Part shown: positions 7,811-55,145 of the stretch, in pieces
Layout of the letters: each line of letters begins with the position of its first letter
Position numbering within the stretch: the first letter of the stretch is position 1
Assembly (NCBI RefSeq): GCF_037975245.1
Contig: NC_092575.1
Span: 139,001 to 203,000, forward strand
Length of the DNA stretch: 64,000 nucleotides
From: Apostichopus japonicus
Lineage: Eukaryota > Echinodermata > Holothuroidea > Aspidochirotida > Stichopodidae
Reading direction: 5' to 3'
Made by a program: the position numbers and the translations under genes
Notes under the pieces: model-generated
Seen by the model: the letters and a program-made list of their open reading frames with translations, nothing else
Databases searched by the model: none
Told to the model about the DNA's origin: nothing

Positions 7811-9744
7811 TATCTATATGTATTACTACAATCCCTCGCATAAGTCCATGGTTAGACCAGGGGTCTCCCTGGTTACATCGTTGTATAGCGCTCTTTAGGG
7901 TGACCACTGCACGAAAGCATGTTTACGACCGTTTTGGGGGATTTTTACCGCAAATTGTCCTGAGGTCAACCCTAATAACCCATTTGCACGTCGTGAAAGG
8001 CGACACCGGGCCGGGAAAGTATTAGCTTGGTATTCTCCAAGCAAGGTTATTACGTGTAAGAGAGTCTTTACTAGTAGTTAGGGAGAGGAATTTTACTACC
8101 TGGTAAATTGTTTTGCGAGATACACGTACAGTACAGTGAACTTCCAGTACCCTCATTACAGATATGACAGAGATCAAATGTATATATCATGCCAGCGTGT
8201 AAATCATTGCATAAACTGAGTTCATTTAAGGTTCATACGTTCTGTAGCAAAGTGAACATGAAGCCATCAGGTTGTGATGTTATAGTTTCTTCTTGAAAAA
8301 ATGTCTTTCTTTAACTCTATCGCTTTTTCCTTGAATTGAATATGGTTTCACTGCAGGGATCTTATAAATTGTGCATTGCCAACGAAACGACATGGTACTT
8401 CAAAATGATGAGGAATATTAAAATATTCAAATTCGGGTAGGTAATTAGTGACTTCATATCTACAGTCAATTAATCAATGTAAAACGCAAAAGTTCAGGTC
8501 GTCAAATTATAAGGTCAAAGGTCAAACTTGGTACGTGTTTGCCAAATTTAAACTTCTACCTTTCCAGCTAACTGCACTAAAAGCTCAGTGAAAATGACAC
8601 CGTTCTATGCAATTTCCATATCAATATTCATTATTTCCATCATTTTTATTGAGTTTTCTGTCAATAAACATTTTGATCCGAATAAAATTTGCCAGATTTA
8701 TTAAAAGAGTCCGTAGATTCTACAAACTTCAATAAAATTTTGCAAGCCCGGCCGAACAGATCATGCGCCAATCAAATTTCTTTGTCTTGTTTACGCCCGT
8801 TAGGCCTGTGTTAGGTTCCTAAGTTCTCTTGAATAGCATCTTTCTGTCGGTCTAACCGATGTAGCTTGCAAAACTTGTGTCATTTCCTTCCATCGCAATG
8901 AATACACAGGTGTTTTCAGACGTTTGCTCCGTGGAATTGGGTCAACAAAGTGGACGGTACGAGTATATATTGGTTACATTTGTGTTACGAACATGCTGAT
9001 ATGGGCGGTCGCAGTGATTTTAGGTAAATAGTTCGCACCATAAGGGCAACAGAAAATTAATTTCTTTATTTCGATTGTGACAGCTTTTCTCCATTTAACC
9101 CACCTGGTCAGAGTGCATTTAGAATAAGAAACATTAAATTGATTTCGGAAGTTTGTTCTCCGAAATCAAACACGTATTGAGACTTTAAGTGAAAACACGT
9201 TTCGCTAAATACTCCATAACCAGGTGGTCGATGGACTTCAAATTTGGTCGGTATGTGCCTGGGCACAGGTGCCTGCGTGACTCAGGACGGCATAGGGTTG
9301 AAGGTCGTGGTTAAATCATTGAAAAACAACCATTTGGACCATTACGCGTACATTGTAACATTATAACGGTATGCCTGTCTTGATTTTCTAAGCTTATGGC
9401 AACAACGGGTCAAACCAAAATTGATTTCGGCCATTTCACGTTTTCCAAAATGACAATATTGCTGAAACCTACTTGGCTCAAACCCAAGTAGGGTACAGTA
9501 TCAGATTCACAGTGCATTAAATAAAGTCAAACGCCAAAGTACACGTGATCAAAAGGGTCAAAGGGCCAAATTGACCAAATTTTGTGAGATGTGGTGTCCC
9601 TCGTTTCTTATGACGTCATATGGTCAGAGGTTAAAGATGAAATATCTAAAAACAGCATTGTGGCCATTAAGTACACACTAGTACAACTATGAAGAAATAG
9701 TCCAAACGTGCGAACCACGGAGGAAATCAGACTACACATGTTTA
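7811..9744. other. Gene-free upstream flank of the first PTB gene
   Basis: No exon recognised. It includes a perfect AGGTCA direct repeat at 8512-8524 and degenerate GGTCAAAGG-type sequences at about 9548-9580, related to the array that follows. Confidence 0.4.
8512..8524 (+). promoter_or_regulatory. AGGTCAAAGGTCA (DR1) motif
   Basis: Two AGGTCA half-sites separated by one A. This is the consensus DR1 site bound by RXR heterodimers, HNF4 and COUP-TF type nuclear receptors. The surrounding bases (TTAATCAATG before, AACTTGG after) resemble the 64-bp unit at 9745-10256, so it is probably a stray, diverged copy. Function is inferred only. Confidence 0.4.
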
Positions 9745-10256
9745 CAGTGCATTAATCAATGCAAAGGATCGTATTCTTGTAGGAGGTCAAAGGTCAAACT
9801 TAGCCAAACAGTGTATTAATCAATACAAAGGATCGTATTCTTGTAGGAGATCAAAGGTCAAACTTAGCCAAACAGTGTATTAATCAATGCAAAGGATCGT
9901 ATTCTTGTAGGAGGTCAAAGGTCAAACTTAGCCAAACAGTGCATTAATCAATGCAAAGGATCGTATTCTTGTAGGAGGTCAAAGGTCAAACTTAGCCAAA
10001 CAGTGCATTAATCAATGCAAAGGATCGTATTCTTGTAGGAGGTCAAAGGTCAAACTTAGCCAAACAGTGTATTAATCAATGCAAAGGATCGTATTCTTGT
10101 AGGAGATCAAAGGTCAAACTTAGCCAAACAGTGTATTAATCAATACAAAGGATCGTATTCTTGTAGGAGATCAAAGGTCAAACTTAGCCAAACAGTGTAT
10201 TAATCAATGCAAAGGATCGTATTCTTGTAGGAGGTCAAAGGTCAAACTTAGCCAAA
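9745..10256 (+). repeat. Eight 64-bp tandem repeats each with a nuclear-receptor DR1-like site
   Basis: Exactly eight units of 64 bp. Each carries an AGGTCA-type direct repeat starting at 9784, 9848, 9912, 9976, 10040, 10104, 10168 and 10232. Five are perfect AGGTCA-A-AGGTCA; three (9848, 10104, 10168) have AGATCA as the first half. Units are nearly identical, so the array is young. The last site ends 231 bp before the start codon of the PTB gene at 10476. If the splice acceptor at 10374 is used the array lies in a 5' intron; otherwise it is in the promoter region. Enhancer activity is an inference. Confidence 0.9.
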
Positions 10257-10373: not shown

Positions 10374-10375
10374 AG
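10374..10375 (+). other. Possible splice acceptor upstream of the first PTB gene
   Basis: A T-rich tract at about 10347-10373 ends in TTCTTAG before GTGACG. It could be the acceptor for a non-coding 5' exon. The second PTB gene has an acceptor in a similar place (24551-24552), which supports a shared structure with a 5' UTR intron. Confidence 0.35.
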
Positions 10376-10475: not shown

Positions 10476-11635
10476 ATGTCTTTTTTTCGCAAAAAGAAAG
10501 AAGTTGACTTTTTAGAGCAAGAAAAGGCTATTGACAAAGAAATTGCGGTTGAGAGAAATTTAGCGGAGAAAGCAAAGGCCGAAGAAGAGCCTGCTCTTAA
10601 CAAAGGTGAGGTTCGAGTCCGAGAAATCGAAACCCAACCAAAGCATGTCGTCAGTGACGAGACGTCCCGAGAGCGAAATCGACTGAAATACAAAGATACT
10701 ACCGGTTTGGTAACTTCACAAGAAAAGAACAGCTATCCCACATTTAATGTGTTTTACCTTGGACGCATACCAACTAGCGTCGAATATGGTATGGAGGCTG
10801 TAGAAAGCCCTGTTGACCAGCTGTGTCGACTGAGAGACAAACAAAAGCTCCCAAAAGTAGCTGTGACATTTGACACGGAAGGGCTCACCATTAAGGAACT
10901 ATCTTCATCTTTGTTCTCCAAGAATAAAAGTAAAAAAGATGGGATAGATATTTATCTACCGTTGCATCACATTACATACGGTGTTGCCAGTGAAGCCCAC
11001 CCTCTCGTTTTTGCTTGTATTTCTCGTATGGCGGAGGACGATACACCACACGATGACGGCATGCCTGTGTTGATGCTCTACGCTTTCCTTTGTGATAAGG
11101 TCGACACAGCGCAGCAAATTACTTACTGGCAATTACAAGCATACATTGAAGCGTATGAAGAACTCAAGCGCAAGAAGATTTTACGAAATCGGCGAAAGCA
11201 AGCTCTCGGTTCTCGAAAACCTGCAGCGAGTATGGCGCAGCGTAAGGCGGGGAGTGCAGGTTACGATCAACCACTCCCATTGTACGGCAACGAGCCACCA
11301 CCGCCGCTGGAGGAGGAGGAGGAAAACGGTAATGATATTCCTAAGAAGGGGTACAAGGTTAAGAACAAAGGTTACAGCAAGCCAAAATCTGATAATGGAT
11401 ACATACCGGACAGTGACATAAACATGGACAAAGAACAAAAAGCAAGCAGCCCACTTGGACCCTCTTCACCAACCGAAAAGTCACGAAGTGGTTCAATAAC
11501 ATCTGAAGACAGTCAAGGGGGCTCGAGAGATGTAGCATTCGAAAGGAGGATTTCAGAAATGAATGACTTAATGGTAGAGATGGATGCCGAGAAGCTGAAG
11601 AAATTGATGATCTCCAACCATGCGTCTCTTGCAAG
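10476..11635 (+). CDS. PTB/PID-domain protein, FAM43-like, copy 1, exon 1
   Basis: Codes for residues 1-386 and two bases of codon 387 of a predicted 417-residue protein; the rest is at 12905-12998. The N-terminus (1-75) is highly charged and may form a coiled coil. A phosphotyrosine-interaction/PTB fold covers about 86-237: the first strand FNVFYLGRIP, a basic KLPKVAVTF strand, the core LPLHHITYGVASEAHPLVFACISR, then YAFLCDK and a C-terminal helix TYWQLQAYIEAYEELKRKK. The tail is low-complexity, with an acidic EEEEE stretch, Ser-rich segments and a helical FERRISEMNDLM segment. PTB proteins are cytoplasmic adaptors binding NPxY-type peptides or lipids; the partner is unknown. The VAxxxxPxVFA core resembles FAM43 proteins. 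The exon ends at GCAAG|GTAAGA. ATG 10476 is the first codon of the long frame. A paralogue lies at 24592. PTB fold is near certain; FAM43 assignment is moderate. Confidence 0.85.
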
Positions 11636-11649
11636 GTAAGAGAGTTATG

Positions 11650-12520
11650 ACTAAGTAACTAAGTAACACTAAGTAACACGATATCTCAAGGTAAGAATCA
11701 TGTATACTTTTCGTACTTGACATGTATACGCCCCATATCGAGTAGACAAAGCGTATTGTTTTTGGTGGAAGACAGAGGTAATTGAAGTCACCAGAGGTCA
11801 AACGCTGAAAACTTTGTAAACACGATATCTCATGATAGCAAGAATGGAAGTATGAATAATATTTTATACTTGGCATGCGTATGCGTCATATTGAGCAGAA
11901 GACTCCGATTGCGTTTGGTGCGGGTCAAAGATCATCTGATGTCACCAGTGGTCAAATAATCAGTGTAAGCACTTTATCTCAAGATACGTAGGAAGCATGG
12001 ATACCTTTCATACTTACATGTGGATGCGTCATATTGTGAGGAAGAAGCCTGTAGTTGTTCGTGGAGGTCAAAAGTCTTATAAGGTCACTATCTGAGTAAA
12101 AAAAACTGGAAACCTTGTGAACAGGATATCTCCAGATAGGAGGCAAGAATACTTCTCACATTTATCTTGTGGATGTGTTATAATTAGTAAATAACTACGT
12201 TGTTTTTTAGTGGAGGCCAAAGGTCATCTGAGGTCACCAGTGGTCAAATTCTGAATACCCTTTATACATGATATCTCATGGTAGAAGCCACGGATATTTC
12301 TCATACATGGTATATGGATTTGCCCAATAAAAAACACCTGTTGTTGTTGGTGTAGGTCAAAGTTCGCTTGAGGTCACCAGAGGCAAAAACTCTGACAATC
12401 GTTAAACATGATATCTAAAGATAGAAATCATGGATACTTCTCATACTTGGTGTGTGCCTGTGTGGATCCATTGCATTGAGTAAAAGATCCCTATTATTTC
12501 TGGTGAAGGTGTATATTGCC
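11650..12520 (+). repeat. Degenerate ~145-bp tandem repeat rich in AGGTCA half-sites, inside intron 1
   Basis: About five diverged units, recognisable by GAGGTCACCAGAGGTCAAA-like blocks near 11785, 11935, 12083, 12226 and 12369 and by the recurring ACATGATATCTCA motif between them. It is the same family, in opposite orientation, as the array at 52740-54600. It fills most of the intron between the two coding exons of the PTB gene. Confidence 0.75.
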
Positions 12521-15611: not shown

Positions 15612-18600
15612 ACGACTTCCTTAACATGAAAAACGAGACTTTAACATGCCATTGAAACTTCTCGACATTTCCATGGTAAGTGCCCAATATTCGGTGAGTG
15701 TTACTCTCCGCAGGTAACACAAATTTCCACTTTCTCAAATAACGAAGAATCAACACTTCAAACCCTTCGTCTATGTTTCGTTATTAAGAAATCATTTCTC
15801 TCGCAAAAAAATGATCAAAGATAACGTGTTTTAAAGAGAAATTCGTACACCACTTATATATTGAATGAATAATCGTTTATATTATGTTTGTATTCATTTA
15901 TTGCAACTTAAGAGTAGTGTTAGTGTGTTACCTAGCATACATCGGTGAATATCATGTTCGTAGTCTATGGCGCTAATGTCATAGCAACGTATCTATATAC
16001 CTATCGATCTGTCAACACCAGTTCAAAGGTCGTTGCTTGTAGACTATTTGCATGGTCCCGACGAACGTTGTCATGGTTATTGTCCATGTGAGGGACTTCA
16101 TAAATCTTTACACAAAAAGTTATGTTAAAGGATGCATGTATGGCGCGCCATCTGTGTCAGATCAAGGGGAATCGACATATATACCAATTTGAATCAGTGT
16201 GGGCCAAATTAAATCGAACTCTGAAAATTAAAAATAATAACAGTGATTTATAACGCGTTCGTATCCAACCAGAAAAGAGCGCTCAAGGCGCAAAAAAACA
16301 AATGAAATCCTTCAAAATTAATGTAAAGTGTCCATGAAAGCTTGTTGCATAGGTAAGCTTTAAGCTTCTTTATAAAGGAGAAGACACTCTTAGCCGACTT
16401 GATTCTAAATGGTAACAGCTTCAAAAACTGTTACGCATGTTAACTCCAACAACAACAAATTGTTGAACTCCATATGTAATATGTGGACCCCCTTACCGAG
16501 TACAAGAAGCTTATGGCATTTCGTGGAGTTTAAAGATAGGTCACTGAATGTGAAAGTCTGAAACCTATTAATATGATGCTTCAACAACAAAGATTGTGTA
16601 ACATGCTAAGCATGTGCATCGAACTTAGTGCAATATATCTGTTGCTCTTACTAAAGGTGAAAAAAGGCCCACAGAGGTCCATAGAAGTCCATGATTGGGA
16701 AACCTATTTAGCAAACATGACAGCCCAAAGCAACATTTTCATGAACTTGATTTACGCGAATCAACCACACTGAGTAGCTTCTACATAAGAAGTCAAAAAA
16801 TTACACTAATGTACCTCGTTATAGACCATATGGACATGTCAACGTTGTATTTCCATTCCACATTTTAATTAGTGAAATTTCCCTTTATATCCCTTTAAGG
16901 CTGATCAATGTAAGTGGTTGGACTATGCTACTTAGGATAATACACATACCTGTAGGCCAGTTTCTCAGATCAATGGCTTTACTAGAGAAAAGGAGCATGG
17001 GGCACGTGCACACCCCCCCCCCCAAAAAAAGAATGTTCTCCCCTCCCTGGTGCCACCCAAAATGACATTTGCCATGTTTAAAAAGTTTGGCAGAAAGATA
17101 CAAACCTTATGATTCTATAATCGTTTGACTATAATTTACTGAATTTTCGTAATATAGAATTAACATTTAGTGTTTTCTGTAATGGTCATGTTTACTACTA
17201 GTTACTGATTTTTTTTATTGCAACTACGGGTCGCTAAATTTCATGTTGTCTAGAGTTTTCTCAAACTATCTAACTGATATCAAGTGAGCCTTTGCAGAGT
17301 TTCAATTTGTGAGTAAGAAAGTCATTAAATGGTTTAACAAAGCTGGAATGACATGGAAAACTATAGAATCAACAACATTCACTCCAAACTTTTGCTAGAA
17401 AAACAACTAAATATGGTAATAGCTCAATCTGTTCTTCTGAACAGAAAGAACACTGTGACATGGGCACTGTGAATGTGTGCATTATTTCATACTCTACTTA
17501 GCCTATATAATGTGTGAATTATTGTCACTGTATGTTATATCCATACTATACGTAATACCATGTCTATGGCCCGCTAACTGAGGCATGTGCGTCACCAGTA
17601 TCATAAATTATAGAAATATGATGACGAGGACGATGATTATGATGATGACGTTTCCCGAGTCCATGATAGGTTCAATGTCCCCAACAAACTTGTGCAACCG
17701 ATATGCGGAGAAAAACCTAACCTTCGAAGTATACGTTAGTCGTGAGATGATGTTTGCTTATTTGCTGTTTAGTTAAGGATCAGCACAGGACTATTTGTTG
17801 TGTTGTTACAGTGCAAGTATCAGAACATGGAAAACTACCTCGGGCAAGACTTACATATGCTATCATTATATGGCGTCATATTATGTCGTCATCGGACTGA
17901 CCTCGTGACACCATACGTCATAATTATGAACATGTCGTTGTCGTAAGTAATCCATGCTTCTCTTGGCTATAGTCAGGCGACATTTTGTACCACCAGGATA
18001 TAATTCAAACCATCATCGGTGAGAACAGATGATTTGCTATTTAGGATTGAAAAAGGTTTTTTTCACCTCGTTTCACACGCAGACATTTTGCATACGTAAC
18101 TTCTCAGTCACCCTCAGTTGGTGAATAGAGCTGGAGTACGAACGAAGAACTGTGAGCTAGCTACGTAGATCGATATCGATGGCTAGTGTAGTGGGAGGCA
18201 GTCAGCTGCAATGAAAGCATGTATGCAGAAATCAGAAATTTATTCTTCCCTCGATCTCTATATATTGGATGAAATGCATGGTAACATTTCCTATTCTTCT
18301 TCATGTGATGCCGACTGGTTACTTTAATAACAAGAGTGTGAAACTATATCAAATCATCAATCCAAAAGTAATTTATGCCAAAGTCAAGTTACGTATGATC
18401 TGTCTATCCAAGAAATCATCTTTTCTGATTTTTTGGAAAGTTATACATTTTCGAGTATCTGCTGTTTCAATTTTGGCTGTTGACTGTTTAAAATGGCACC
18501 ATCATGATGAAGCAACGCCATGCCGATTCAGAAGTTAAACTGTCTCGAGTCTCGGAAGTGGCCCCGATAAATATCTCCTGATCATCACTACAACTTTCGT

Positions 18601-24550: not shown

Positions 24551-24552
24551 AG
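24551..24552 (+). other. Splice acceptor upstream of the second PTB gene
   Basis: A strong pyrimidine tract (TTCCTTTTTTCCTTTTACAG) ends here, 39 bp before the start codon. It predicts a non-coding first exon upstream, not located in the sequence. Confidence 0.6.
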
Positions 24553-24562
24553 CTGACAAACC

Positions 24563-24592
24563 ATGCATGTACAAGTTTTCTGTGTGATGTAA
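24563..24592 (+). promoter_or_regulatory. Upstream ORF of 9 codons overlapping the PTB gene start
   Basis: ATG at 24563 opens a frame MHVQVFCVM followed by TAA at 24590-24592. The last A of the TAA is the first A of the main ATG (TAATG overlap). Such an arrangement could limit translation or support reinitiation. Its presence in the mRNA depends on the acceptor at 24551-24552. Confidence 0.5.
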
Positions 24593-26025
24593 TGGCAGCG
24601 CTAAAGATTGGTCGCAGGACACCAAAACAAGAGATGACATCTTCGAAGAGAGACAAAGACCCCATCTCCTCCCGGTCGAAGTGCCCAGTTTTTACCGTTC
24701 AATACCTTGGAAAGTTACCAGCACGAGGCGAGTATGGCCGAGAGTACATATCAGAGCCTGTTGAATGCTTGTTGAAATTAAAAGAGAAGCAACGGTTACC
24801 AAAAACAACTTTAACTGTTTCTGAAAAGGGATTTCATTTTTTGGATCAGAATGGCCCATTTGGAAAAGAGAAGCATGTTTTAATTCCACTCCATAACATT
24901 TGCTATGGCGTTGCCGACGAACAGTCACCGCGTGTGTTTGCTATCATAACCAGGTCAGACAGTAACTCCGCAAGTAGCCTGTTCGAATGTCATGCATTTC
25001 TTTGTGACAAAAGAAAAACATCTAGTGAAATAACTTATTGGCTATTGAGGACATTTTTACAAGTATTTGAAGAACTCCAAAAGAAAAGAAGACTTCGACA
25101 GGATAAGAAGCGACAAGAAAACGGAGGAAATAACGACGGCCGAGTTGCAGAATCTTCCAAGGATGCAAGAGGTTCCAAAGCTAGGTTGTCATTTGGACCC
25201 GAAAAACCATTTGAAACTGGATCTTACTCAGTCATTCTGGAAGGTAGCAAAGGACACGGTGCAGCCGTGGGTTTAACATTGGACAAGTCAAGGTCTCGTA
25301 ATTCCCATGTGACATCACGACAGAAATCCCATGGAAACGAGCAGCAGCGAAGAAATGACGAACGTGACTTAAACGCAAACTTTTACTCGAGATCTCCCCA
25401 AGATCCCTTGATTACCATCAATGCAGATGTCCACCCTCATCCTTCGACAGCTCAGCTAAAGCATAGACTACCTCACCACCAAGTGGTTCCACAAGTCAAG
25501 GGTGGTAGTCGTAGTACTTACATTTATTCAGGTGGTGTTCAGCCTCCTCCACACACGACGAATCATCAAGGTTCGAACCATCATAGACATCAAGTGGTCC
25601 CGAACTACGCCGCGCAACGAGCTCCATCCAGCGTTGGACGGTATACAAGGAACAATCCTCAATCCCAGAATGGATTTGTGGGAAGAGAAGGAAGATCGGT
25701 AGCTCAACCAAGTAGTCACGATGACTCGGATTTTTTATTTATTGAGTTATTGCAGGAAGAATTCACCGACGGTCGCCATCAAGACGGATTCTCAGTGAGA
25801 AGCGGTAGACGAGGAGAAGTAATTGGCCCGCCTAATCAGATGCTCCGTAGCGAGGATATTGAAAGACGAATCCACGAGTGGCTATCTGCAAGAGAAGAGC
25901 CCAGCGAGGATGATATTTCTGTTTTTGCAGAAGATGAAACTGTACATCATCCACCAGAGATATTACGACGTCAGTTCAGTGGAGGAGACACCGTTAGTGT
26001 AGCTTCAAGCGATTCGTATTTTTGA
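24592..26025 (+). CDS. PTB/PID-domain protein, FAM43-like, copy 2
   Basis: A single coding exon for 477 residues. The PTB/PID fold lies at about 32-165: CPVFTVQYLGKLPARGEYG, KQRLPKTTLTV, the core LIPLHNICYGVADEQSPRVFAIITR, then CHAFLCDK and the C-terminal helix EITYWLLRTFLQVFEELQKK. This parallels copy 1 (YLGRIPTSVEYG, LPLHHITYGVASEAHP, YAFLCDK, TYWQLQAYIEAYEEL), showing duplication. The rest is low-complexity: a basic segment after the PTB, a His/Pro/Gln-rich region (about 280-370), then an acidic helical part (DIERRIHEWLSAREEPSEDD) that may correspond to FERRISEMND in copy 1. It is likely a cytoplasmic adaptor; ligand unknown. The start follows a 9-codon upstream frame. Unlike copy 1, there is no intron before the stop. 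FAM43 resemblance is moderate; the PTB call is strong. Confidence 0.85.
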   Translation: MAALKIGRRTPKQEMTSSKRDKDPISSRSKCPVFTVQYLGKLPARGEYGREYISEPVECLLKLKEKQRLPKTTLTVSEKGFHFLDQNGPFGKEKHVLIPLHNICYGVADEQSPRVFAIITRSDSNSASSLFECHAFLCDKRKTSSEITYWLLRTFLQVFEELQKKRRLRQDKKRQENGGNNDGRVAESSKDARGSKARLSFGPEKPFETGSYSVILEGSKGHGAAVGLTLDKSRSRNSHVTSRQKSHGNEQQRRNDERDLNANFYSRSPQDPLITINADVHPHPSTAQLKHRLPHHQVVPQVKGGSRSTYIYSGGVQPPPHTTNHQGSNHHRHQVVPNYAAQRAPSSVGRYTRNNPQSQNGFVGREGRSVAQPSSHDDSDFLFIELLQEEFTDGRHQDGFSVRSGRRGEVIGPPNQMLRSEDIERRIHEWLSAREEPSEDDISVFAEDETVHHPPEILRRQFSGGDTVSVASSDSYF

Positions 26026-33747: not shown

Positions 33748-35293
33748 ATGGCGTTTATAAGAGGAGCTTTGTCAAGAGCGCGAGAAGTATTTGGGAAATC
33801 TGAGGATCGTACTCCATTTGTGAAGTCAGATGAACTAGAGTCTGATGAACTGAGCAGAAATAGTGAAGTTAACCAACAAGAATCCAACCGACAGCCTAAG
33901 CCGTGGCTCCAACTAGCTCGATTAAGTGGAACTGTTTGTGGCATCGAATTCTGTTATGCTGCCGAAACGGCTTTTGTCAGTCCTATACTTTTGAGGATCG
34001 GGATTCCGCAACGATTTATGACAATGGTATGGTGTCTGAGTCCTTTGATGGGATTTCTATGGATGCCGATTTTAGGATCTGCAAGTGATAGATGTGGTTC
34101 TCGTCTAGGAAGACGTCGACCTTTCATCATCCTTCTCTCAGTGGGAATCATAATTGGTTTGATATTAGTGCCAAACGGCTATCGTCTAGGGGGTGCCACG
34201 TGTGGACTGGAAGTAGTGAATTCAACCAACAGTACATCTTGCATAGAGAATATAACTCCGGAACCACTTGACGTGTTGTACGGCTTCTCGGGATTCGAGT
34301 CTGGTATGGAATCGTTATATGACAACGAAACTACCACCATTTTACCCATACAGACAAGTGAGATGCCGCTGCCGGCATGCCGATTGATACCCACTGTTGC
34401 TGGACATACTTGTGGTATTATCTTTACCGTTATTGGCATCATGCTTCTTGATTTTAACTGTGATGCTTGTCAATCTCCAGCCCGGGCATATTTAATTGAC
34501 GTTACACAACCAGAAGATCATGTCAGGGGGTTGTCCATGTTCAGTTTTATGGCCGGTCTTGGTGGGTCATTGGGCTATATGATCGGAGGCATTCCATGGC
34601 ATGAGTCAACCGGAAGTGACATAGTAGGAGCACAAATTCGATTTGTATTTGGCTTAGTTTTGATCATCTTTGTAATTGCCCTAGTTTTAACTGTTACGGC
34701 CGAAAAAGAAAAAACCCTTCAAGAGATCTTCCCAGAGGAGAGGAAGAAAAAGAAAAAAAATGTTGAAAATGATGAGGAAATGGAACTGGGTATTTTGCAG
34801 CCAAAAAAAAGTTACGGAACTGGAGAAGAAAAGATTAAAGATAAGCAAGATATTGAAGAGGCAAGTGTGGTCAACATAAGTGAAAACGAAACTCCACAAG
34901 AGATACGCGAGAATGGCTTTGGTGAAGAGAAGATGTTGGTTGAAGGCACCATGGGTAATGAGATGACGGACACTGATCGGAGAGAAGAATCAACTGATGC
35001 CGAGAATGTTAGTATGACGACATACCTGCTGTCAATCATTCGAATGCCATGGTCCGTTAGAATTCTTTGTTGTACACATCTCCTCGGCTGGATGTCCCTT
35101 TTGTGTTACTCCCTGTATTTCACCGACTTCGTTGGTCAAGCTGTGTACGGAGGGGATCCTTATGCAGAACCTGGGACTCCTGAGAGATATGCATACGCCA
35201 AAGGAGTACGCATGGGATCTTACGCAATGGGTCTCTACTCCTTCACATGTGCTGTTTGTTCATTTACTTTAGAACGGATGATGGCAAAAGTTG
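33748..35293 (+). CDS. SLC45-family sugar/proton transporter, exon 1
   Basis: First and largest exon of a predicted 664-residue membrane protein (exons 33748-35293, 39649-39824, 40212-40484). SLC45 proteins are major-facilitator carriers, related to plant sucrose transporters, that move sugars with protons across plasma or organelle membranes. Evidence: after a charged N-terminus the first helices read WLQLARLSGTVCGIEFCYAA and FMTMVWCLSPLMGFLWMP; the family's SDRCGSRLGRRRPF signature lies at about 112-125; NCDACQSPARAYLIDV is in TM5 (about 241); a glycine-rich GLGGSLGYMIGG follows. A long loop between TM3 and TM4 has several N-glycosylation sequons (NST, NIT, NET). A very charged loop at about 325-425 separates the two halves. 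The start has a good context (ACAATGG). The exon ends GTTG|GTAAGT, phase 1. The substrate is not predictable. Intron 1 is about 4.4 kb and full of repeats. Confidence 0.92.
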
Positions 35294-35344
35294 GTAAGTC
35301 GAATAATGTCTTGTTTCCTTTACTTGCCAATATCCCATCTTAAA

Positions 35345-46609: not shown

Positions 46610-47719
46610 ATGGAACACCTTCAGGGAATCGCCAACGACACTCTTTACGTACAGTTTGATGTCCCTGTCACGTTGCAAGTTGTCCAATTAATTCTAGGAC
46701 TGGCCATAGTGATTGTGAACGTATTTGTTATGGTTGCCTACGGTCAAGACAGAGACGTACGCAGTGTCCCTGCAAATGTCTTTATTTTACATCTCTCTAT
46801 TTCAGACTTTTTGACAGGTCTTGTCCTCATCGTTCGGTTTGCATGGATCGTTCAGGATCCTCTCGTGTCTATACATATGTCCACACCGTGTCTTGTAATA
46901 GGTGCAGCTCACTTAGCTTCCCTGATAATGTCTGTTTTGTTCGTCATTCTCATCAGCTGGGATCGTTATTTAATGGTTTCAAATCCATTTAAGTATCGCC
47001 AATACACAGTTTCTCGGGCTATGCGTATCGCCATCTGTAGCTGGAGTTTTATGCTACTGTATATACTTTTAATCGTATTTGGGTTTCCAGGCATTCATCA
47101 GCTTATTTTCCACGCTCCTTTGGAGTCAACTTTTTGCATAGAGACTCAAATTCCACGAGAGGCTGTGTTTCTGTCCCTCTGGTTGGATTTTGTAGTACCA
47201 TTTTTCCTTCTCTTGTACTTTAATGGAGGTGTGAATTATAAACTTCGAAAAGCAACTTTAGAGAAATATAAAAAACAAAGACTGGAACTAGATGGTGTTG
47301 ACAACCCAAGTGTGTCTACGAGAGACCAGGACTCCTGCACTGAAGTTGTCGAACAGACCGGATATCCGGAAAACATTCGAGAAACACAAATGTCTGTTAT
47401 TGATAAAGGCAAAATTTCGAACAATTCTAACCAGAATCCACAGGAAGAGAGAATTAAACAGTCAGCTAAAAGAGAACTGAGAAAAGTTTTAAGAACAGCA
47501 GGGATACTTCGTACTTTTATTGCTGTCTTTTGTCTTAATTGGTTACCATTTTATATTGTCTTAATTGTTAATATATCCAAGCCAGTCCCTGCCAACTTAA
47601 TCACCGTTGCTTCCCTCAATGTATCACTCAACTCGTTTGTTAATCCTTTCCTCTATGCTTTCATGAGTAGGAAAATTCGACGACGGCTTCATTTATTAAT
47701 TAAGTGCAGGACAAGATAA
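46610..47719 (+). CDS. Class A (rhodopsin-like) G-protein-coupled receptor, orphan, copy 1
   Basis: Intronless frame of 369 residues with seven membrane segments. Landmarks: TM1 Asn37; LSISD with Asp66 in TM2; Cys94 at the top of TM3 and Cys176 in loop 2 (FCIETQIP) for the disulfide; DRY at 118-120; Trp145 in TM4; Pro197 in TM5; NWLPF (311-313) in TM6; NSFVNPFLYA (NPxxY 345-349) in TM7. The C-tail is very short, with Cys366 as a possible lipidation site. Loop 3 (about 215-290) is charged. An N-glycosylation site NDT is near the N-terminus. The general form is close to amine-type receptors, but position 3.32 is His101 instead of the Asp that binds amines, so the ligand is probably not a classical biogenic amine. 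The start AAAATGG is good and has no upstream hydrophobic extension. A paralogue faces it at 50531-51727. Confidence 0.92.
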   Translation: MEHLQGIANDTLYVQFDVPVTLQVVQLILGLAIVIVNVFVMVAYGQDRDVRSVPANVFILHLSISDFLTGLVLIVRFAWIVQDPLVSIHMSTPCLVIGAAHLASLIMSVLFVILISWDRYLMVSNPFKYRQYTVSRAMRIAICSWSFMLLYILLIVFGFPGIHQLIFHAPLESTFCIETQIPREAVFLSLWLDFVVPFFLLLYFNGGVNYKLRKATLEKYKKQRLELDGVDNPSVSTRDQDSCTEVVEQTGYPENIRETQMSVIDKGKISNNSNQNPQEERIKQSAKRELRKVLRTAGILRTFIAVFCLNWLPFYIVLIVNISKPVPANLITVASLNVSLNSFVNPFLYAFMSRKIRRRLHLLIKCRTR

Positions 47720-50530: not shown

Positions 50531-51727
50531 TTACCTTCTTTTACATTTACCCATAAGAACAAATCGGCGTCGGAACTTCCGACTCATATATGCATACAGA
50601 AATGGGTTTACGAAAGAGTTAAAGGACACGTTCAATGAAGCTACAAGTTTCGTCCAGTCCGGTAGGGGATTAAACATATCGATAATGATAATCAAGTACA
50701 AAGGTAGCCAACCTACAACAAACACAGCCACAAACAACCAAAGAAGTCTCGCTGTTCGGCACATTTTTCTGTATTCCTTTTTTGTTGATTGATATATACG
50801 TTCTTGGGAAGGGTTCCCAAATCCCTTCGTCCGATCACTTTGCCTGCTTCGTGGCGCCATTTTATCCAACTGTGATATTCCACCAGAAGACTGGATTTCT
50901 CTGCTTTCATCAATCACATTCGCTGTCTTCAGTTGATCTACTATGGCGCTTGCTAAGCCCGGATCATTTACACTTTTTACATTCTCTGAGAGAGATAAAT
51001 CAGTTTCCCTGGAGGGTTCACTGAGATTCGATTTGGAATATTTTGCGGATTTTTTGGCGGTTAGTTGTCCATGGAACTTTTCCTCTGTTGCCTTGTAAAG
51101 CTTCACTATAACACCTCCATTAAGAAAAAATAAAATGAGGAATGGAATTACGAAGTCGACCCAAACAAATATTAAAAAGAGAGGCCTCGGTAGATGAGTC
51201 TCCAAGCAAAACATTCCTCGATCTGCAACTGGAAACAGGTTCTCATAAAACAAAGGGAAAACAAATATGAGAAAACTGAGATAAACAGCGAGTATTAACC
51301 AAGCCATGACGGATATCAGGACGGCGCGACCGACGGTGTGCTGACGATAAGCAAATGGCTTTGCGACCATTTGCCATCTGTCGTAGCTGATCAGGATAAC
51401 TAACATCACCGACATCACCAAGGTTCCATAGTGAAGTCCTCCAAGGAAAATACAGGCTACACTTTTAGTGACTGGCACTTCAGCACCCATGACGGCCCAG
51501 ACGAATCGGCCAACCAAGTCAAGGCCAGACAGTAGATCCGAAACAGCTAAATTTAAAATGAAGATGTTTGCTGGTACGATTCGAATTGCTCGATCTTGGA
51601 CAAAGGCAACCATAACAATAATGTTAACGAGAATTATCGCCAACCCGATAACCAGATAACTGACTTGTAAGGGAACCGGTACACTAACAAAAAACTCGTT
51701 CGTAAAATTTCCCGATTGGAACTCCAT
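50531..51727 (-). CDS. Class A (rhodopsin-like) G-protein-coupled receptor, orphan, copy 2
   Basis: Intronless; 398 residues from the ATG at 51727, chosen because MEFQSGNFTNEFF aligns with the start of copy 1; the open frame extends 28 codons further to 51811. Landmarks: N-glycosylation site NFT at 7-9; Asn35 in TM1; AVSD (Asp64) in TM2; Cys92 and Cys174 for the disulfide; DRW (116-118) instead of DRY; Pro195 in TM5; WLPLY (340-344) in TM6; NPFLY (374-378) in TM7; short tail MGKCKRR with a conserved Cys. Loop 3 (about 215-320) is longer than in copy 1 and Ser/Lys-rich. TM1-TM2 and TM7 are highly alike between the copies (VPANxFIL, NSFVNPFLYA). Position 3.32 is His99, as in copy 1. The pair is convergent, about 2.8 kb apart, showing an inverted local duplication. 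Ligand and G protein unknown. Confidence 0.92.
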   Translation of the reverse strand: MEFQSGNFTNEFFVSVPVPLQVSYLVIGLAIILVNIIVMVAFVQDRAIRIVPANIFILNLAVSDLLSGLDLVGRFVWAVMGAEVPVTKSVACIFLGGLHYGTLVMSVMLVILISYDRWQMVAKPFAYRQHTVGRAVLISVMAWLILAVYLSFLIFVFPLFYENLFPVADRGMFCLETHLPRPLFLIFVWVDFVIPFLILFFLNGGVIVKLYKATEEKFHGQLTAKKSAKYSKSNLSEPSRETDLSLSENVKSVNDPGLASAIVDQLKTANVIDESREIQSSGGISQLDKMAPRSRQSDRTKGFGNPSQERIYQSTKKEYRKMCRTARLLWLFVAVFVVGWLPLYLIIIIDMFNPLPDWTKLVASLNVSFNSFVNPFLYAYMSRKFRRRFVLMGKCKRR

Positions 51728-52735: not shown

Positions 52736-53252
52736 CTTCATTTGCATTTGTAATAGTTAACCTTTTGACCTCCACTCAAAATAATGGAGACCTTGTAATC
52801 ATTATAAGAAAGACACATGCCAAATATGAGCTATGTGATGTAACCTATCTTGCGATATCGGGTTTACAAGCTTTGTGTTTATAAGGCTTTACAGAGAGTG
52901 ATTTTGATGACCCACACGACCTTTGACCTCCCCCAAAACAACAAGGTTCTTGTACTCAATATAGGGCAGCCACATATAATATGAGAGCCAATAAAGTCTC
53001 CTATCTGGAGATATTATAATATTTATGATATTTTGTTTAATGACCTCTGACCTACAACAAATTGTGCAAAAGCCTTATACTATAATTTATCCCACTATAC
53101 ATATATGAGCTCCTTTCATGCTCAGGTTCTGGAGATACAGTATTTTTGAGATTATCATATTTTGCCCTCTGCTAACCCAAATGACCTTTGACCTCAACCC
53201 AAACATCATGGTTCTTGTATTCACATATATCTCTTTTTGAAATGTTCTACAC

Positions 53253-53400
53253 CTATTCTACAGAGATTTCCATCATTTCTGCTTTCATTTTGTTCGTATA
53301 ACCTAGACCTACAAGATGGGCTAGTTTGTCTTTCTCAGACATTTTGGCTAGTTCTGAAGCACTAAAGTCTTTGAATTTGTATACATATTTTGACGTCATC
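53253..53400 (-). other. Possible coding exon end, unrecognised
   Basis: On the minus strand the frame KYVYKFKDFSASELAKMSEK, then DKLAHLVGLGYTNKMKAEMM and EISVE-stop, looks like normal protein composition (amphipathic, charged), unlike the adjoining repeat translation. It could be a last exon or fragment of a transposon or host gene. No acceptor was identified with confidence and I do not recognise a domain. Treat as a hint only. Confidence 0.2.
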
Positions 53401-53454
53401 AAAGCGAACAGCGCCGCAAGCATCAAAGGAGACACCAGCATCAAAGGAGACAAC

Positions 53455-53700
53455 AACATAAAAGGACACAACATCATAAGAGACAACAACATGATAACAG
53501 ACAACAACATGATAACAAACAACAACATGATAACAGACAACAACATGATAACAGACAACAACATGATAACAGACAACAACATGATAACAGACAACAACAT
53601 GATAACAGACAACAACATGATAACAGACAACAACATGATAACAGACAACAACATGATAACAGACAACATGATAACAGACAATAACATGATAACAGACAGC
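53455..53700. repeat. 18-bp minisatellite, ~13 copies
   Basis: Unit AACAACATGATAACAGAC (18 bp), nearly perfect except one unit with AAAC and one shortened by 3 bp. It is embedded in the ~145-bp repeat region. Frames on both strands are open with a six-residue period (NNMITD; VCYHVV; LLSVIM). Confidence 0.95.
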
Positions 53701-53754
53701 ATAGAAGTAAACAACATAATACATTGCCCTTTTGGCATTCCATACATTTGAGAC

Positions 53755-53875
53755 CCTTTGAGACAACCTGTTGACCCTTTGAGCCAATTTTGGGACCATT
53801 TGGGGTAACCTGTTTGACCCCTTGAGCCAATTTTGGGACCCTTTGAGATAACCTGTTGACCCCTTGTTCATGCAC
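53755..53875. repeat. ~35-bp repeat, TTTGAGCCAATTTTGGGACC
   Basis: Short run of GACCCTTTGAG / CAACCTGTTGACCCCTTGAG units, 3-4 copies. Confidence 0.7.
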
Positions 53876-54609
53876 CCACAACAAGAGTAACTATTGGAAG
53901 CAGATTGGATGAATGTATGTGTTGTTGTCATAAAACTAAAGTGAACTGAAGGTGACCAAACTATATAACACAAAAAGAAAACTAATAGTATCAGAGAATT
54001 CACCAGATTAATTGTAGATTTAACTTTTGGAGTTATTATGTCAAAGCATTTCAAACTTTGAGAACTGTTGACCTCATGTGACCTTTGACCTCCACCAATT
54101 TAACAGGGTTCTTGTGCACAACAAAGTGGATCTGCATACCTAGTGTGAAGTTCAACAAAGAGTACTTCTTGAGTTATTGTGTTTGCAAGGTTTTCTGGTT
54201 TTGATTTATGTTGACCGTAAATGACCTTTGACCTCCACCAATTTCATTAGGGTTCTTGCACTCACCAAGCTGGATCTACATACCAAGTATGATGTTCAAC
54301 AATACTGTACTTCTTGAGTTAACACATTTACAAATTTTTCAGACTTTGACCTCTGTTGACCTCAAAAACCTTTGACCTTCACAGAAATAATAAGATTCTT
54401 GTACTCACTAAGATGGGCCCAGTGAAGTTAATCCACCATGAACTTTATGATTCACCGTGTTTACAAGAATGTGTAACATACATTTACACACACTACCACC
54501 ACTGCAACAGCAACTTTTTTGGGATTATGCGCTAAAAAAACTAATTATTATTAATATTACTACAGGATTTCAGATTTTGACCTCTGTTGACCTCACAAGG
54601 GCTCAACAT

Positions 54610-55145
54610 CTCAAAACACCAGACATCTTGTACCCATTTGGTGGATCCACACATCAAGAATGAATACAACCATCCTGTATATTAACAAATCAAAGGGTTT
54701 GCATACACACATGCAAGAAATACACACATACAAGAAATTAGCACAAACACCAAGTTTGTGAATGAACACAAGAACAAATGATATGTGTTTTGATGGATAT
54801 GAAATGTGTATTTGTAAATAAGGCATAATCCTAAAAACATGTTATAAGAAAGAATCCCAGTATGATATTAATGCAAGCATTGCATTCATTGAATATGAAA
54901 TTACTTCTCTGATACACACATAACCACTTAGCTAAATTAAGACGGTCTCTGGACATATATAGGTAGATATGAGGACAGAACTAAAACTGCATAAACTGGT
55001 GTCCCCGTAGACTGAATCATTCAGAAAAGATAATATCCTGGAAGGATAAATAAACTAACCAGCAACCTTCACTGAGCATTAACTTAGATCTAAGTATTGA
55101 TTTCAATTCTGCTTTAGTTAGTACACAGGACTAACTGCCACAGTT
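54610..55145. other. Gene-free stretch
   Basis: No recognised gene; short imperfect ACACATACAAGAAA repeats at 54700-54745. Confidence 0.4.

What the first reader, a model, noticed from the sequence alone, without database searches (positions are those of the whole stretch)
9745..10256. Eight exact 64-bp repeats, each with an AGGTCA direct repeat, next to a PTB gene
Five units carry a perfect DR1 (AGGTCA-A-AGGTCA) and three an AGATCA variant, spaced exactly 64 bp, 231 bp from the coding start at the nearest. DR1 is the consensus for RXR, HNF4 and COUP-TF class receptors. A homotypic cluster with fixed spacing could be a strong nuclear-receptor enhancer, or simply a young satellite that happens to contain the motif.
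Basis: partly seen in the sequence, partly recalled or inferred. Interest (0 to 1): 0.75.

Follow-up and report, generated by a model that had tools for sequence, protein, structure and literature searches.

The report
Private minisatellite carrying common receptor motif
An eight-copy tandem repeat next to a PTB-domain gene, probably in the sea cucumber Apostichopus japonicus, contains a nuclear-receptor-like DNA word, but that word occurs about 15,000 times in the same genome, mostly beside a further half-site as in an abundant repeat, so the array is most likely an ordinary young minisatellite and not a special enhancer.

Summary
Positions 9745-10256 are eight head-to-tail 64-bp units, not all identical: four unit types differ at three transition sites. 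Five units carry AGGTCAAAGGTCA and three AGATCAAAGGTCA. The nearest site lies 231 bp before the ATG of a PTB gene (Pfam PID_2). A unit search found it nowhere else in the 671.6-Mb genome.

The enhancer reading gains no specific support. The exact DR1 word occurs 14,819 times in this genome against 45 for its mirror image; 8,574 of these have a further GGTCA at the spacing of one ~145-bp repeat family, also present in this window. Fixed spacing follows from tandem duplication, and one of three variable sites falls inside the DR1. A candidate splice acceptor at 10374, echoed in a paralogous PTB gene, suggests a 5' intron. Against this: exact-DR1 pairs this close are rare (12 genome-wide, 2 here).

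Best reading: a young, locus-private minisatellite, one of 21 arrays in this window, that holds a common word. Unexplained: within the 145-bp family the DR1 block is the best-conserved part (88% against 76%).

The parts
9745..10256 (+). Array of eight 64-bp tandem units, four unit types; found only at this locus
   Evidence: only genome match of the whole array and of a single unit
9784..10244 (+). Eight DR1-like sites every 64 bp: exact AGGTCAAAGGTCA at 9784, 9912, 9976, 10040, 10232; AGATCAAAGGTCA at 9848, 10104, 10168
8462..8529 (+). Single diverged possible relative of the unit, with an exact DR1 at 8512-8524 followed by AACTT, as in the unit
   Evidence: 69% over 67 columns, E 0.011; its upstream part scores p about 0.0013 against random genomic stretches, but among 43 DR1-type sites compared another one (L004) ties with it; suggestive only
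10374..10375 (+). Candidate splice acceptor (gctttacgttcttAG), 100 nt before the ATG, which would put the array in a 5' UTR intron
   Evidence: one of 54 of 3,371 AGs of the window that meet a simple pyrimidine-tract rule at its level, the only such one between 9000 and 12000; no RNA data
10476..11639 (+). PTB-domain protein (FAM43-like; that name is recalled), 387 aa, single open frame
   Evidence: Pfam PF14719 PID_2, E 2.9e-11
11713..12510 (+). Six tandem diverged copies of the abundant DR1-DR4-DR4 repeat family ('Y family') just 3' of the PTB gene
   Evidence: nhmmer hits 11713-11832, 11866-11982, 12009-12133, 12157-12278, 12302-12416, 12442-12510, E 9.4e-25 to 4.6e-8
52762..54662 (-). Seven further Y-family copies, among them those with exact DR1 at 53182, 54079 and 54222
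24592..26025 (+). Paralogous PTB gene (477 aa) without a DR1-bearing array, with an acceptor-like site (tttttccttttacAG, by eye at 24551-24552) just before the ATG
   Evidence: 38% identity over 155 aa, E 2e-33; PID_2 E 2.5e-13; sequence read; no DR1 at <=1 mismatch listed between 12226 and 43773

Best explanation
The array is a young, locus-private minisatellite. A 64-bp stretch that already held one AGGTCAAAGGTCA word was duplicated head to tail, by slippage or unequal exchange, up to eight units. The DR1 comes along because this word is extremely common in the genome, in large part through a ~145-bp tandem and dispersed repeat family whose unit carries a DR1 followed by two DR4-spaced half-sites. 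Copies of that family begin 74 bp behind the stop codon of the same gene. The regular 64-bp spacing is a by-product of duplication. The array probably lies in a 5' UTR intron of the PTB gene and most likely has little or no receptor-dependent function. Shown: the anatomy, no second locus for the unit, the genome-wide abundance of the word, its link to the repeat family. Inferred: the duplication mechanism, the source of the DR1, the intronic position, the lack of function.
For: Unit types in the order a b c a a d b c, differing only by transitions at 3 of 64 columns, as recent segmental duplication leaves. The unit is found 8 times, all in this array. The window holds 21 arrays with units of 20-200 bp and at least 3 copies, against 23 in 20 random 10-kb stretches, so minisatellites are usual here. 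Exact DR1: 14,819 against 45 mirror control; AGGTCA-N0-8-AGGTCA: 42,439 against 1,301. 8,574 of the 14,819 exact DR1 have GGTCA at the repeat family's next half-site, control 0. Of the first 30 exact DR1 sites on C1, 12 lie in that family, 7 share flanks with other sampled sequence, 11 have no relative in the ~273 kb compared. One of the three variable columns falls in the 13-bp DR1, as expected without constraint (probability of at least one is 0.50).
Against: Exact-DR1 pairs at 50-80 bp spacing are rare: 12 in the genome, 2 of them in this array, the other 10 at 9 places. In the random 200 kb no array carried a DR1 within 2 mismatches. A position near a gene start and five intact consensus sites are what an enhancer would also show. 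Descent of the unit's DR1 from the 145-bp family is only weakly supported (p 0.02-0.03). In that family the DR1 block is conserved better than its surroundings, so receptor binding may matter for DR1-bearing repeats in general. With three variable columns the test of constraint has little power.
Confidence: 0.8

Rival explanations
1. A homotypic nuclear-receptor enhancer in the 5' intron or promoter of the PTB gene: RXR, HNF4 or COUP-TF class dimers bind the eight DR1 sites and control the gene.
For: Five consensus and three near-consensus DR1 sites, 231 bp from the ATG at the nearest. Exact-DR1 pairs of this spacing are rare in the genome. DR elements in human repeats can bind receptors and drive transcription (PMC3252374, abstract and section 13; PMC1785376, abstract and sections 5 and 6).
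Against: The word is ~330 times over-represented genome-wide and 58% of exact copies carry the repeat family's next half-site (8,574 of 14,819). The DR1 is not spared from variation within the array. The paralogous PTB gene has no such array. Regular spacing is explained by duplication.
Confidence: 0.12
2. The array is a truncated or rearranged part of the abundant 145-bp DR1-DR4-DR4 repeat family, i.e. a repeat copy and not an independent minisatellite.
For: The 33 bp ending in the unit's DR1 align colinearly with the family model, 11.6 bits.
Against: Most of that score is the DR1 itself; without it the upstream match is p 0.02-0.03. The reported alignment stops within one base after the DR1. 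A unit search gave no other copy in the genome.
Confidence: 0.05
3. Assembly artefact: wrong copy number or collapsed or inflated array.
For: Copy number was not checked on reads.
Against: 512 bp is far below HiFi read length (recalled), and the published assembly that this genome resembles used PacBio HiFi reads (PMC10344927, passages). The unit types are mixed, not blockwise copies.
Confidence: 0.03

Closest known systems
Minisatellites (tandem units of roughly 10-100 bp; definition recalled)
   Same: 64-bp unit, 8 copies, 97% matches, no indels, types in scrambled order, in a minisatellite-rich region
   Different: The unit holds a DR1; length variation between individuals was not tested
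Alu-borne DR2 retinoic acid response elements (PMC1785376) and HNF4-alpha sites in Alu (PMC3252374)
   Same: A receptor direct-repeat word multiplied genome-wide by a repeat family; in human 108,582 DR2, 90% in Alu (abstract of PMC1785376)
   Different: There DR2 in a SINE; here DR1 (and DR4) in a ~145-bp tandem and dispersed repeat of a probable sea cucumber. The 64-bp array itself is not dispersed. No binding data here.
Mouse circadian enhancers from transposable elements (PMC8240256, seen in a search listing only)
   Same: Repeats bound by transcription factors and proposed as a source of enhancers (start of its abstract)
   Different: No functional data here; the paper itself was not opened

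Membership tests
Minisatellite | Head-to-tail units of ~10-100 bp with high identity and constant register | tested here: met
   period 64, 8.0 copies, 97% matches, 0% indels; pairwise differences 0-3 of 64
Minisatellite | Array private to a locus, not dispersed | tested here: met
   unit search: 8 matches, all in this array; whole array: 1 match; the tool skips very common words, so distant copies could be missed
Minisatellite | Copy-number variation between individuals | not testable with these tools
   one assembly only
Homotypic nuclear-receptor enhancer | Several consensus receptor sites in a few hundred bp near a gene | tested here: met
   5 exact and 3 one-mismatch DR1 in 461 bp
Homotypic nuclear-receptor enhancer | Sites constrained relative to surrounding sequence | tested here: inconclusive
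   1 of 3 variable columns lies in the 13-bp DR1 and changes a half-site in 3 of 8 units; no sparing seen, but little power with 3 columns
Homotypic nuclear-receptor enhancer | Receptor binding and effect on transcription | not testable with these tools
   no binding, chromatin or RNA data
Repeat-borne DR element (Alu-DR2-like) | Element dispersed in many copies | tested here: not met
   no copy of the 64-bp unit was found elsewhere; the condition is met by the separate 145-bp family

The most novel reading that the evidence does not exclude
The genome of this animal (probably Apostichopus japonicus) carries a receptor-site-bearing repeat family, DR1 followed by DR4-spaced half-sites, in thousands of copies. 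Its DR1 block is the best-conserved part of the unit because nuclear-receptor binding drives its amplification or host use. The PTB-gene array would then be one local, denser cluster of the same word acting as a receptor-responsive intronic enhancer.
Probability: 0.08. Interest if true: 0.7.

Novelty: new member of a known kind. Interest (0 to 1): 0.28.

Why it matters
As found, it shows that a striking homotypic motif cluster can look ordinary once the genome's own background for that word is counted: a shuffle-based null in the window would have misled. If the conserved DR1 block of the 145-bp family is real and receptor-driven, it would be an echinoderm parallel to the Alu-DR2 story and a testable case of repeats multiplying receptor sites.

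Tried and rejected
Rejected: a structured RNA or coding role. There is no Rfam match at gathering score in the whole window, the unit folds no better than shuffles on either strand (z -0.41 and 0.97), and 64 is not a multiple of 3. Rejected: the 64-bp unit as a large dispersed family. ATTAATCAATG followed at 18-46 bases by GGTCAAAGG has 8 matches in the genome: 5 array units, window 8469, and 2 on C2, mirror control 0; the two on C2 were not read. Weak: descent of the unit's DR1 from the 145-bp family (looked promising, one search gave p 0.02-0.03; one search was the same test with an offset error of one base and is superseded). Failed: masking the DR1 in the targets to measure its conservation without detection bias broke the alignments, leaving 3-9 letters in most core columns (core 87%, flanks 77%); a simulation was used instead. 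Uninformative: over-represented 10-mers in the random sample are dominated by other repeats; the PTB protein has no solved-structure relative below E 0.13. Literature: the five word searches that bear on the receptor word or this repeat did not show a description of the repeat or of its DR1 surplus. Limits: one search listed 30 of 45 papers, 15 of 18, 5 of 3,221. Searches were for the assembly, the gene and homotypic clusters. Not obtained: counts of exact-DR1 pairs at 81-111 bp spacing, letters of the other DR1 arrays, RNA-seq, other holothurian genomes.

Full report
WHAT IS THERE. Positions 9745-10256 hold eight head-to-tail 64-bp units without indels. Three columns vary (6, 17 and 42), all by transitions, giving four unit types in the order a b c a a d b c; any two units differ at 0-3 positions. 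Five units carry AGGTCAAAGGTCA and three AGATCAAAGGTCA. The last site ends 231 bp before the ATG at 10476. The open frame 10476-11639 (387 aa) matches Pfam PID_2, a PTB/PID domain, at E 2.9e-11. FAM43 is the name I recall for this type of protein; no call gave it.

WHERE IT IS. The window is G000:C15:139001-203000 of a 671,581,487-base, 35-contig genome. The published Apostichopus japonicus assembly is 671.60 Mb, 23 chromosomes, 34 scaffolds (PMC10344927, passages). The match in size and count makes this species likely, not proven.

IS THE ARRAY UNIQUE? The whole array and the single unit each find only this locus (1 match; 8 matches, all in the array). A possible diverged relative lies at 8462-8529 (69% over 67 columns). 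Its part upstream of the DR1 scores p about 0.0013 against random stretches, but another of the 43 DR1-type sites compared, L004, ties with it, so I treat it as suggestive.

IS THE MOTIF SPECIAL? In the genome the exact word occurs 14,819 times against 45 for the mirror-image word, one per 45 kb, ~330-fold over control. With up to 1 mismatch the counts are 35,553 against 1,150, with up to 2, 74,513 against 20,886. AGGTCA direct repeats with spacers 0-8 number 42,439 against 1,301; of the 100 listed, all on C1, 35 have spacer 1, 29 spacer 4 and 15 spacer 5. [quoted passage not shown] its table was not seen).

WHERE THE WORD COMES FROM. A profile seeded on the window copy at 54222 finds 70 copies of one repeat family in about 354 kb; 90 kb of that sample was fetched because it holds DR1. 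Its consensus contains ...GGAGGTCAAAGGTCATTTGAGGTCACCAGAGGTCAAA..., i.e. DR1, then DR4, then DR4, which would account for the two main spacing peaks, though not for spacer 5. Exact DR1 sites in it recur about every 145 bp. Genome-wide, 8,574 of the 14,819 exact DR1 (58%) have GGTCA at the next half-site's spacing, control 0. Of the first 30 exact DR1 sites on C1, 12 lie in this family, 7 share flanks with other sampled sequence (5 of them with each other, 86-96% identical), and 11 have no relative in the ~273 kb compared. Some primers in a Holothuria leucospilota transcriptome paper resemble this consensus by eye (PMC7161275, one passage), so the family probably exists in another sea cucumber. 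In this window there are 14 hits, six of them tandem at 11713-12510, right behind the PTB gene.

DR1 CLUSTERS ELSEWHERE. Pairs of exact DR1 50-80 bp apart: 12, of which 2 are in this array and 10 at 9 other places, mirror control 1. Pairs 20-49 bp apart: 10 at 6 places, control 0. The 81-111 bp class did not complete. The 145-bp family makes larger but less dense clusters: ten DR1-plus-half-site copies are listed at C1:12149376-12152714. A four-copy series of spacer-1 repeats with 86-bp period lies at C1:2593691-2593961 (letters not seen). So the array is unusual in its tight spacing and number, but clusters of DR1 are not unique to this locus.

MINISATELLITE BACKGROUND. The window has 21 non-overlapping arrays (units 20-200 bp, at least 3 copies) in 64 kb, this one included; 20 random 10-kb stretches (from C1-C20, which include 3,347 N) have 23 in 200 kb. 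None of the random arrays carried a DR1 within 2 mismatches; in the window two arrays did, this one and the 144-bp one at 54049.

PROMOTER OR INTRON. An AG at 10374-10375 behind a pyrimidine tract is one of 54 of 3,371 AGs of the window that meet a simple rule at its level, and the only such one between 9000 and 12000. A second PTB gene at 24592-26025 (38% over 155 aa; PID_2 E 2.5e-13) also has an acceptor-like site just before its ATG (by eye). Both facts suggest a 5' UTR intron, which would contain the array. No donor or first exon was identified and there is no RNA evidence. No DR1 at up to 1 mismatch is listed between 12226 and 43773, around the second gene.

CONSTRAINT. Within the array one of three variable columns is inside the DR1 and changes a half-site in three of eight units; chance gives at least one with probability 0.50. 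This neither shows nor excludes function, but shows no sparing of the motif.

AN UNEXPLAINED SIDE RESULT. In the 145-bp family, after removing the 12 copies that were fetched for their exact DR1, 58 of 70 remain and 47 span the block. The DR1 columns agree with consensus at 88.2%, the others at 76.2%; the DR1 window is the most conserved 13-column window; 9 of 47 are exact where 1.7 are expected from flank identity. Simulated neutral copies passed through the same search show a mean difference of 0.000-0.015 (largest 0.072), and 0 of 1,000 resamples reach 0.12 in each of three settings. Genome-wide excess counts of 14,774, 19,629 and 19,224 at 0, 1 and 2 mismatches imply about 9-14% divergence in the word if taken as one class, against 24% in the family's flanks. 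Cautions: the copies are related (several per tandem cluster), the sample is small, the genome-wide counts mix families and ages, and a core shared by several master lineages would look the same. This does not make the 64-bp array functional.

VERDICT. A young private minisatellite holding a word that the genome has in bulk. The enhancer reading stays possible but has no specific support. On checking I corrected 'denser' to 'larger but less dense' for the clusters elsewhere and marked the constraint test as inconclusive; neither changes the odds.

Noticed in passing
G000 genome-wide; window 11713-12510, 16471-16582, 52762-54662: An abundant ~145-bp tandem and dispersed repeat family with a DR1-DR4-DR4 block of AGGTCA half-sites; the DR1 block is better conserved than the rest of the unit (88% against 76%) for no established reason.
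   Followed up: partly
L002, L018, L022, L028, L030 (centre): A second dispersed family (86-96% identical copies), 5 of the first 30 exact DR1 sites on C1; in 3 of the 5 the DR1 is preceded by a further half-site, AGGTCAAAAGGTCAAAGGTCA.
   Followed up: no
window 10476-11639 and 24592-26025: Two paralogous PTB (PID_2) genes on the same strand, 13 kb apart, 38% identical over the domain.
   Followed up: partly
window 1-64000: Minisatellite density about three times that of the random sample (21 in 64 kb against 23 in 200 kb); the window starts 139 kb from a contig end, perhaps subtelomeric.
   Followed up: no
window 46610-47719 (+) and 50531-51727 (-): Two rhodopsin-family receptor genes (Pfam 7tm_1, E 1e-32 and 7.2e-36) on opposite strands.
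   Followed up: no
window 33748-35343 (+): Open frame of a major-facilitator-type transporter (Pfam MFS_1, E 1.3e-15).
   Followed up: no
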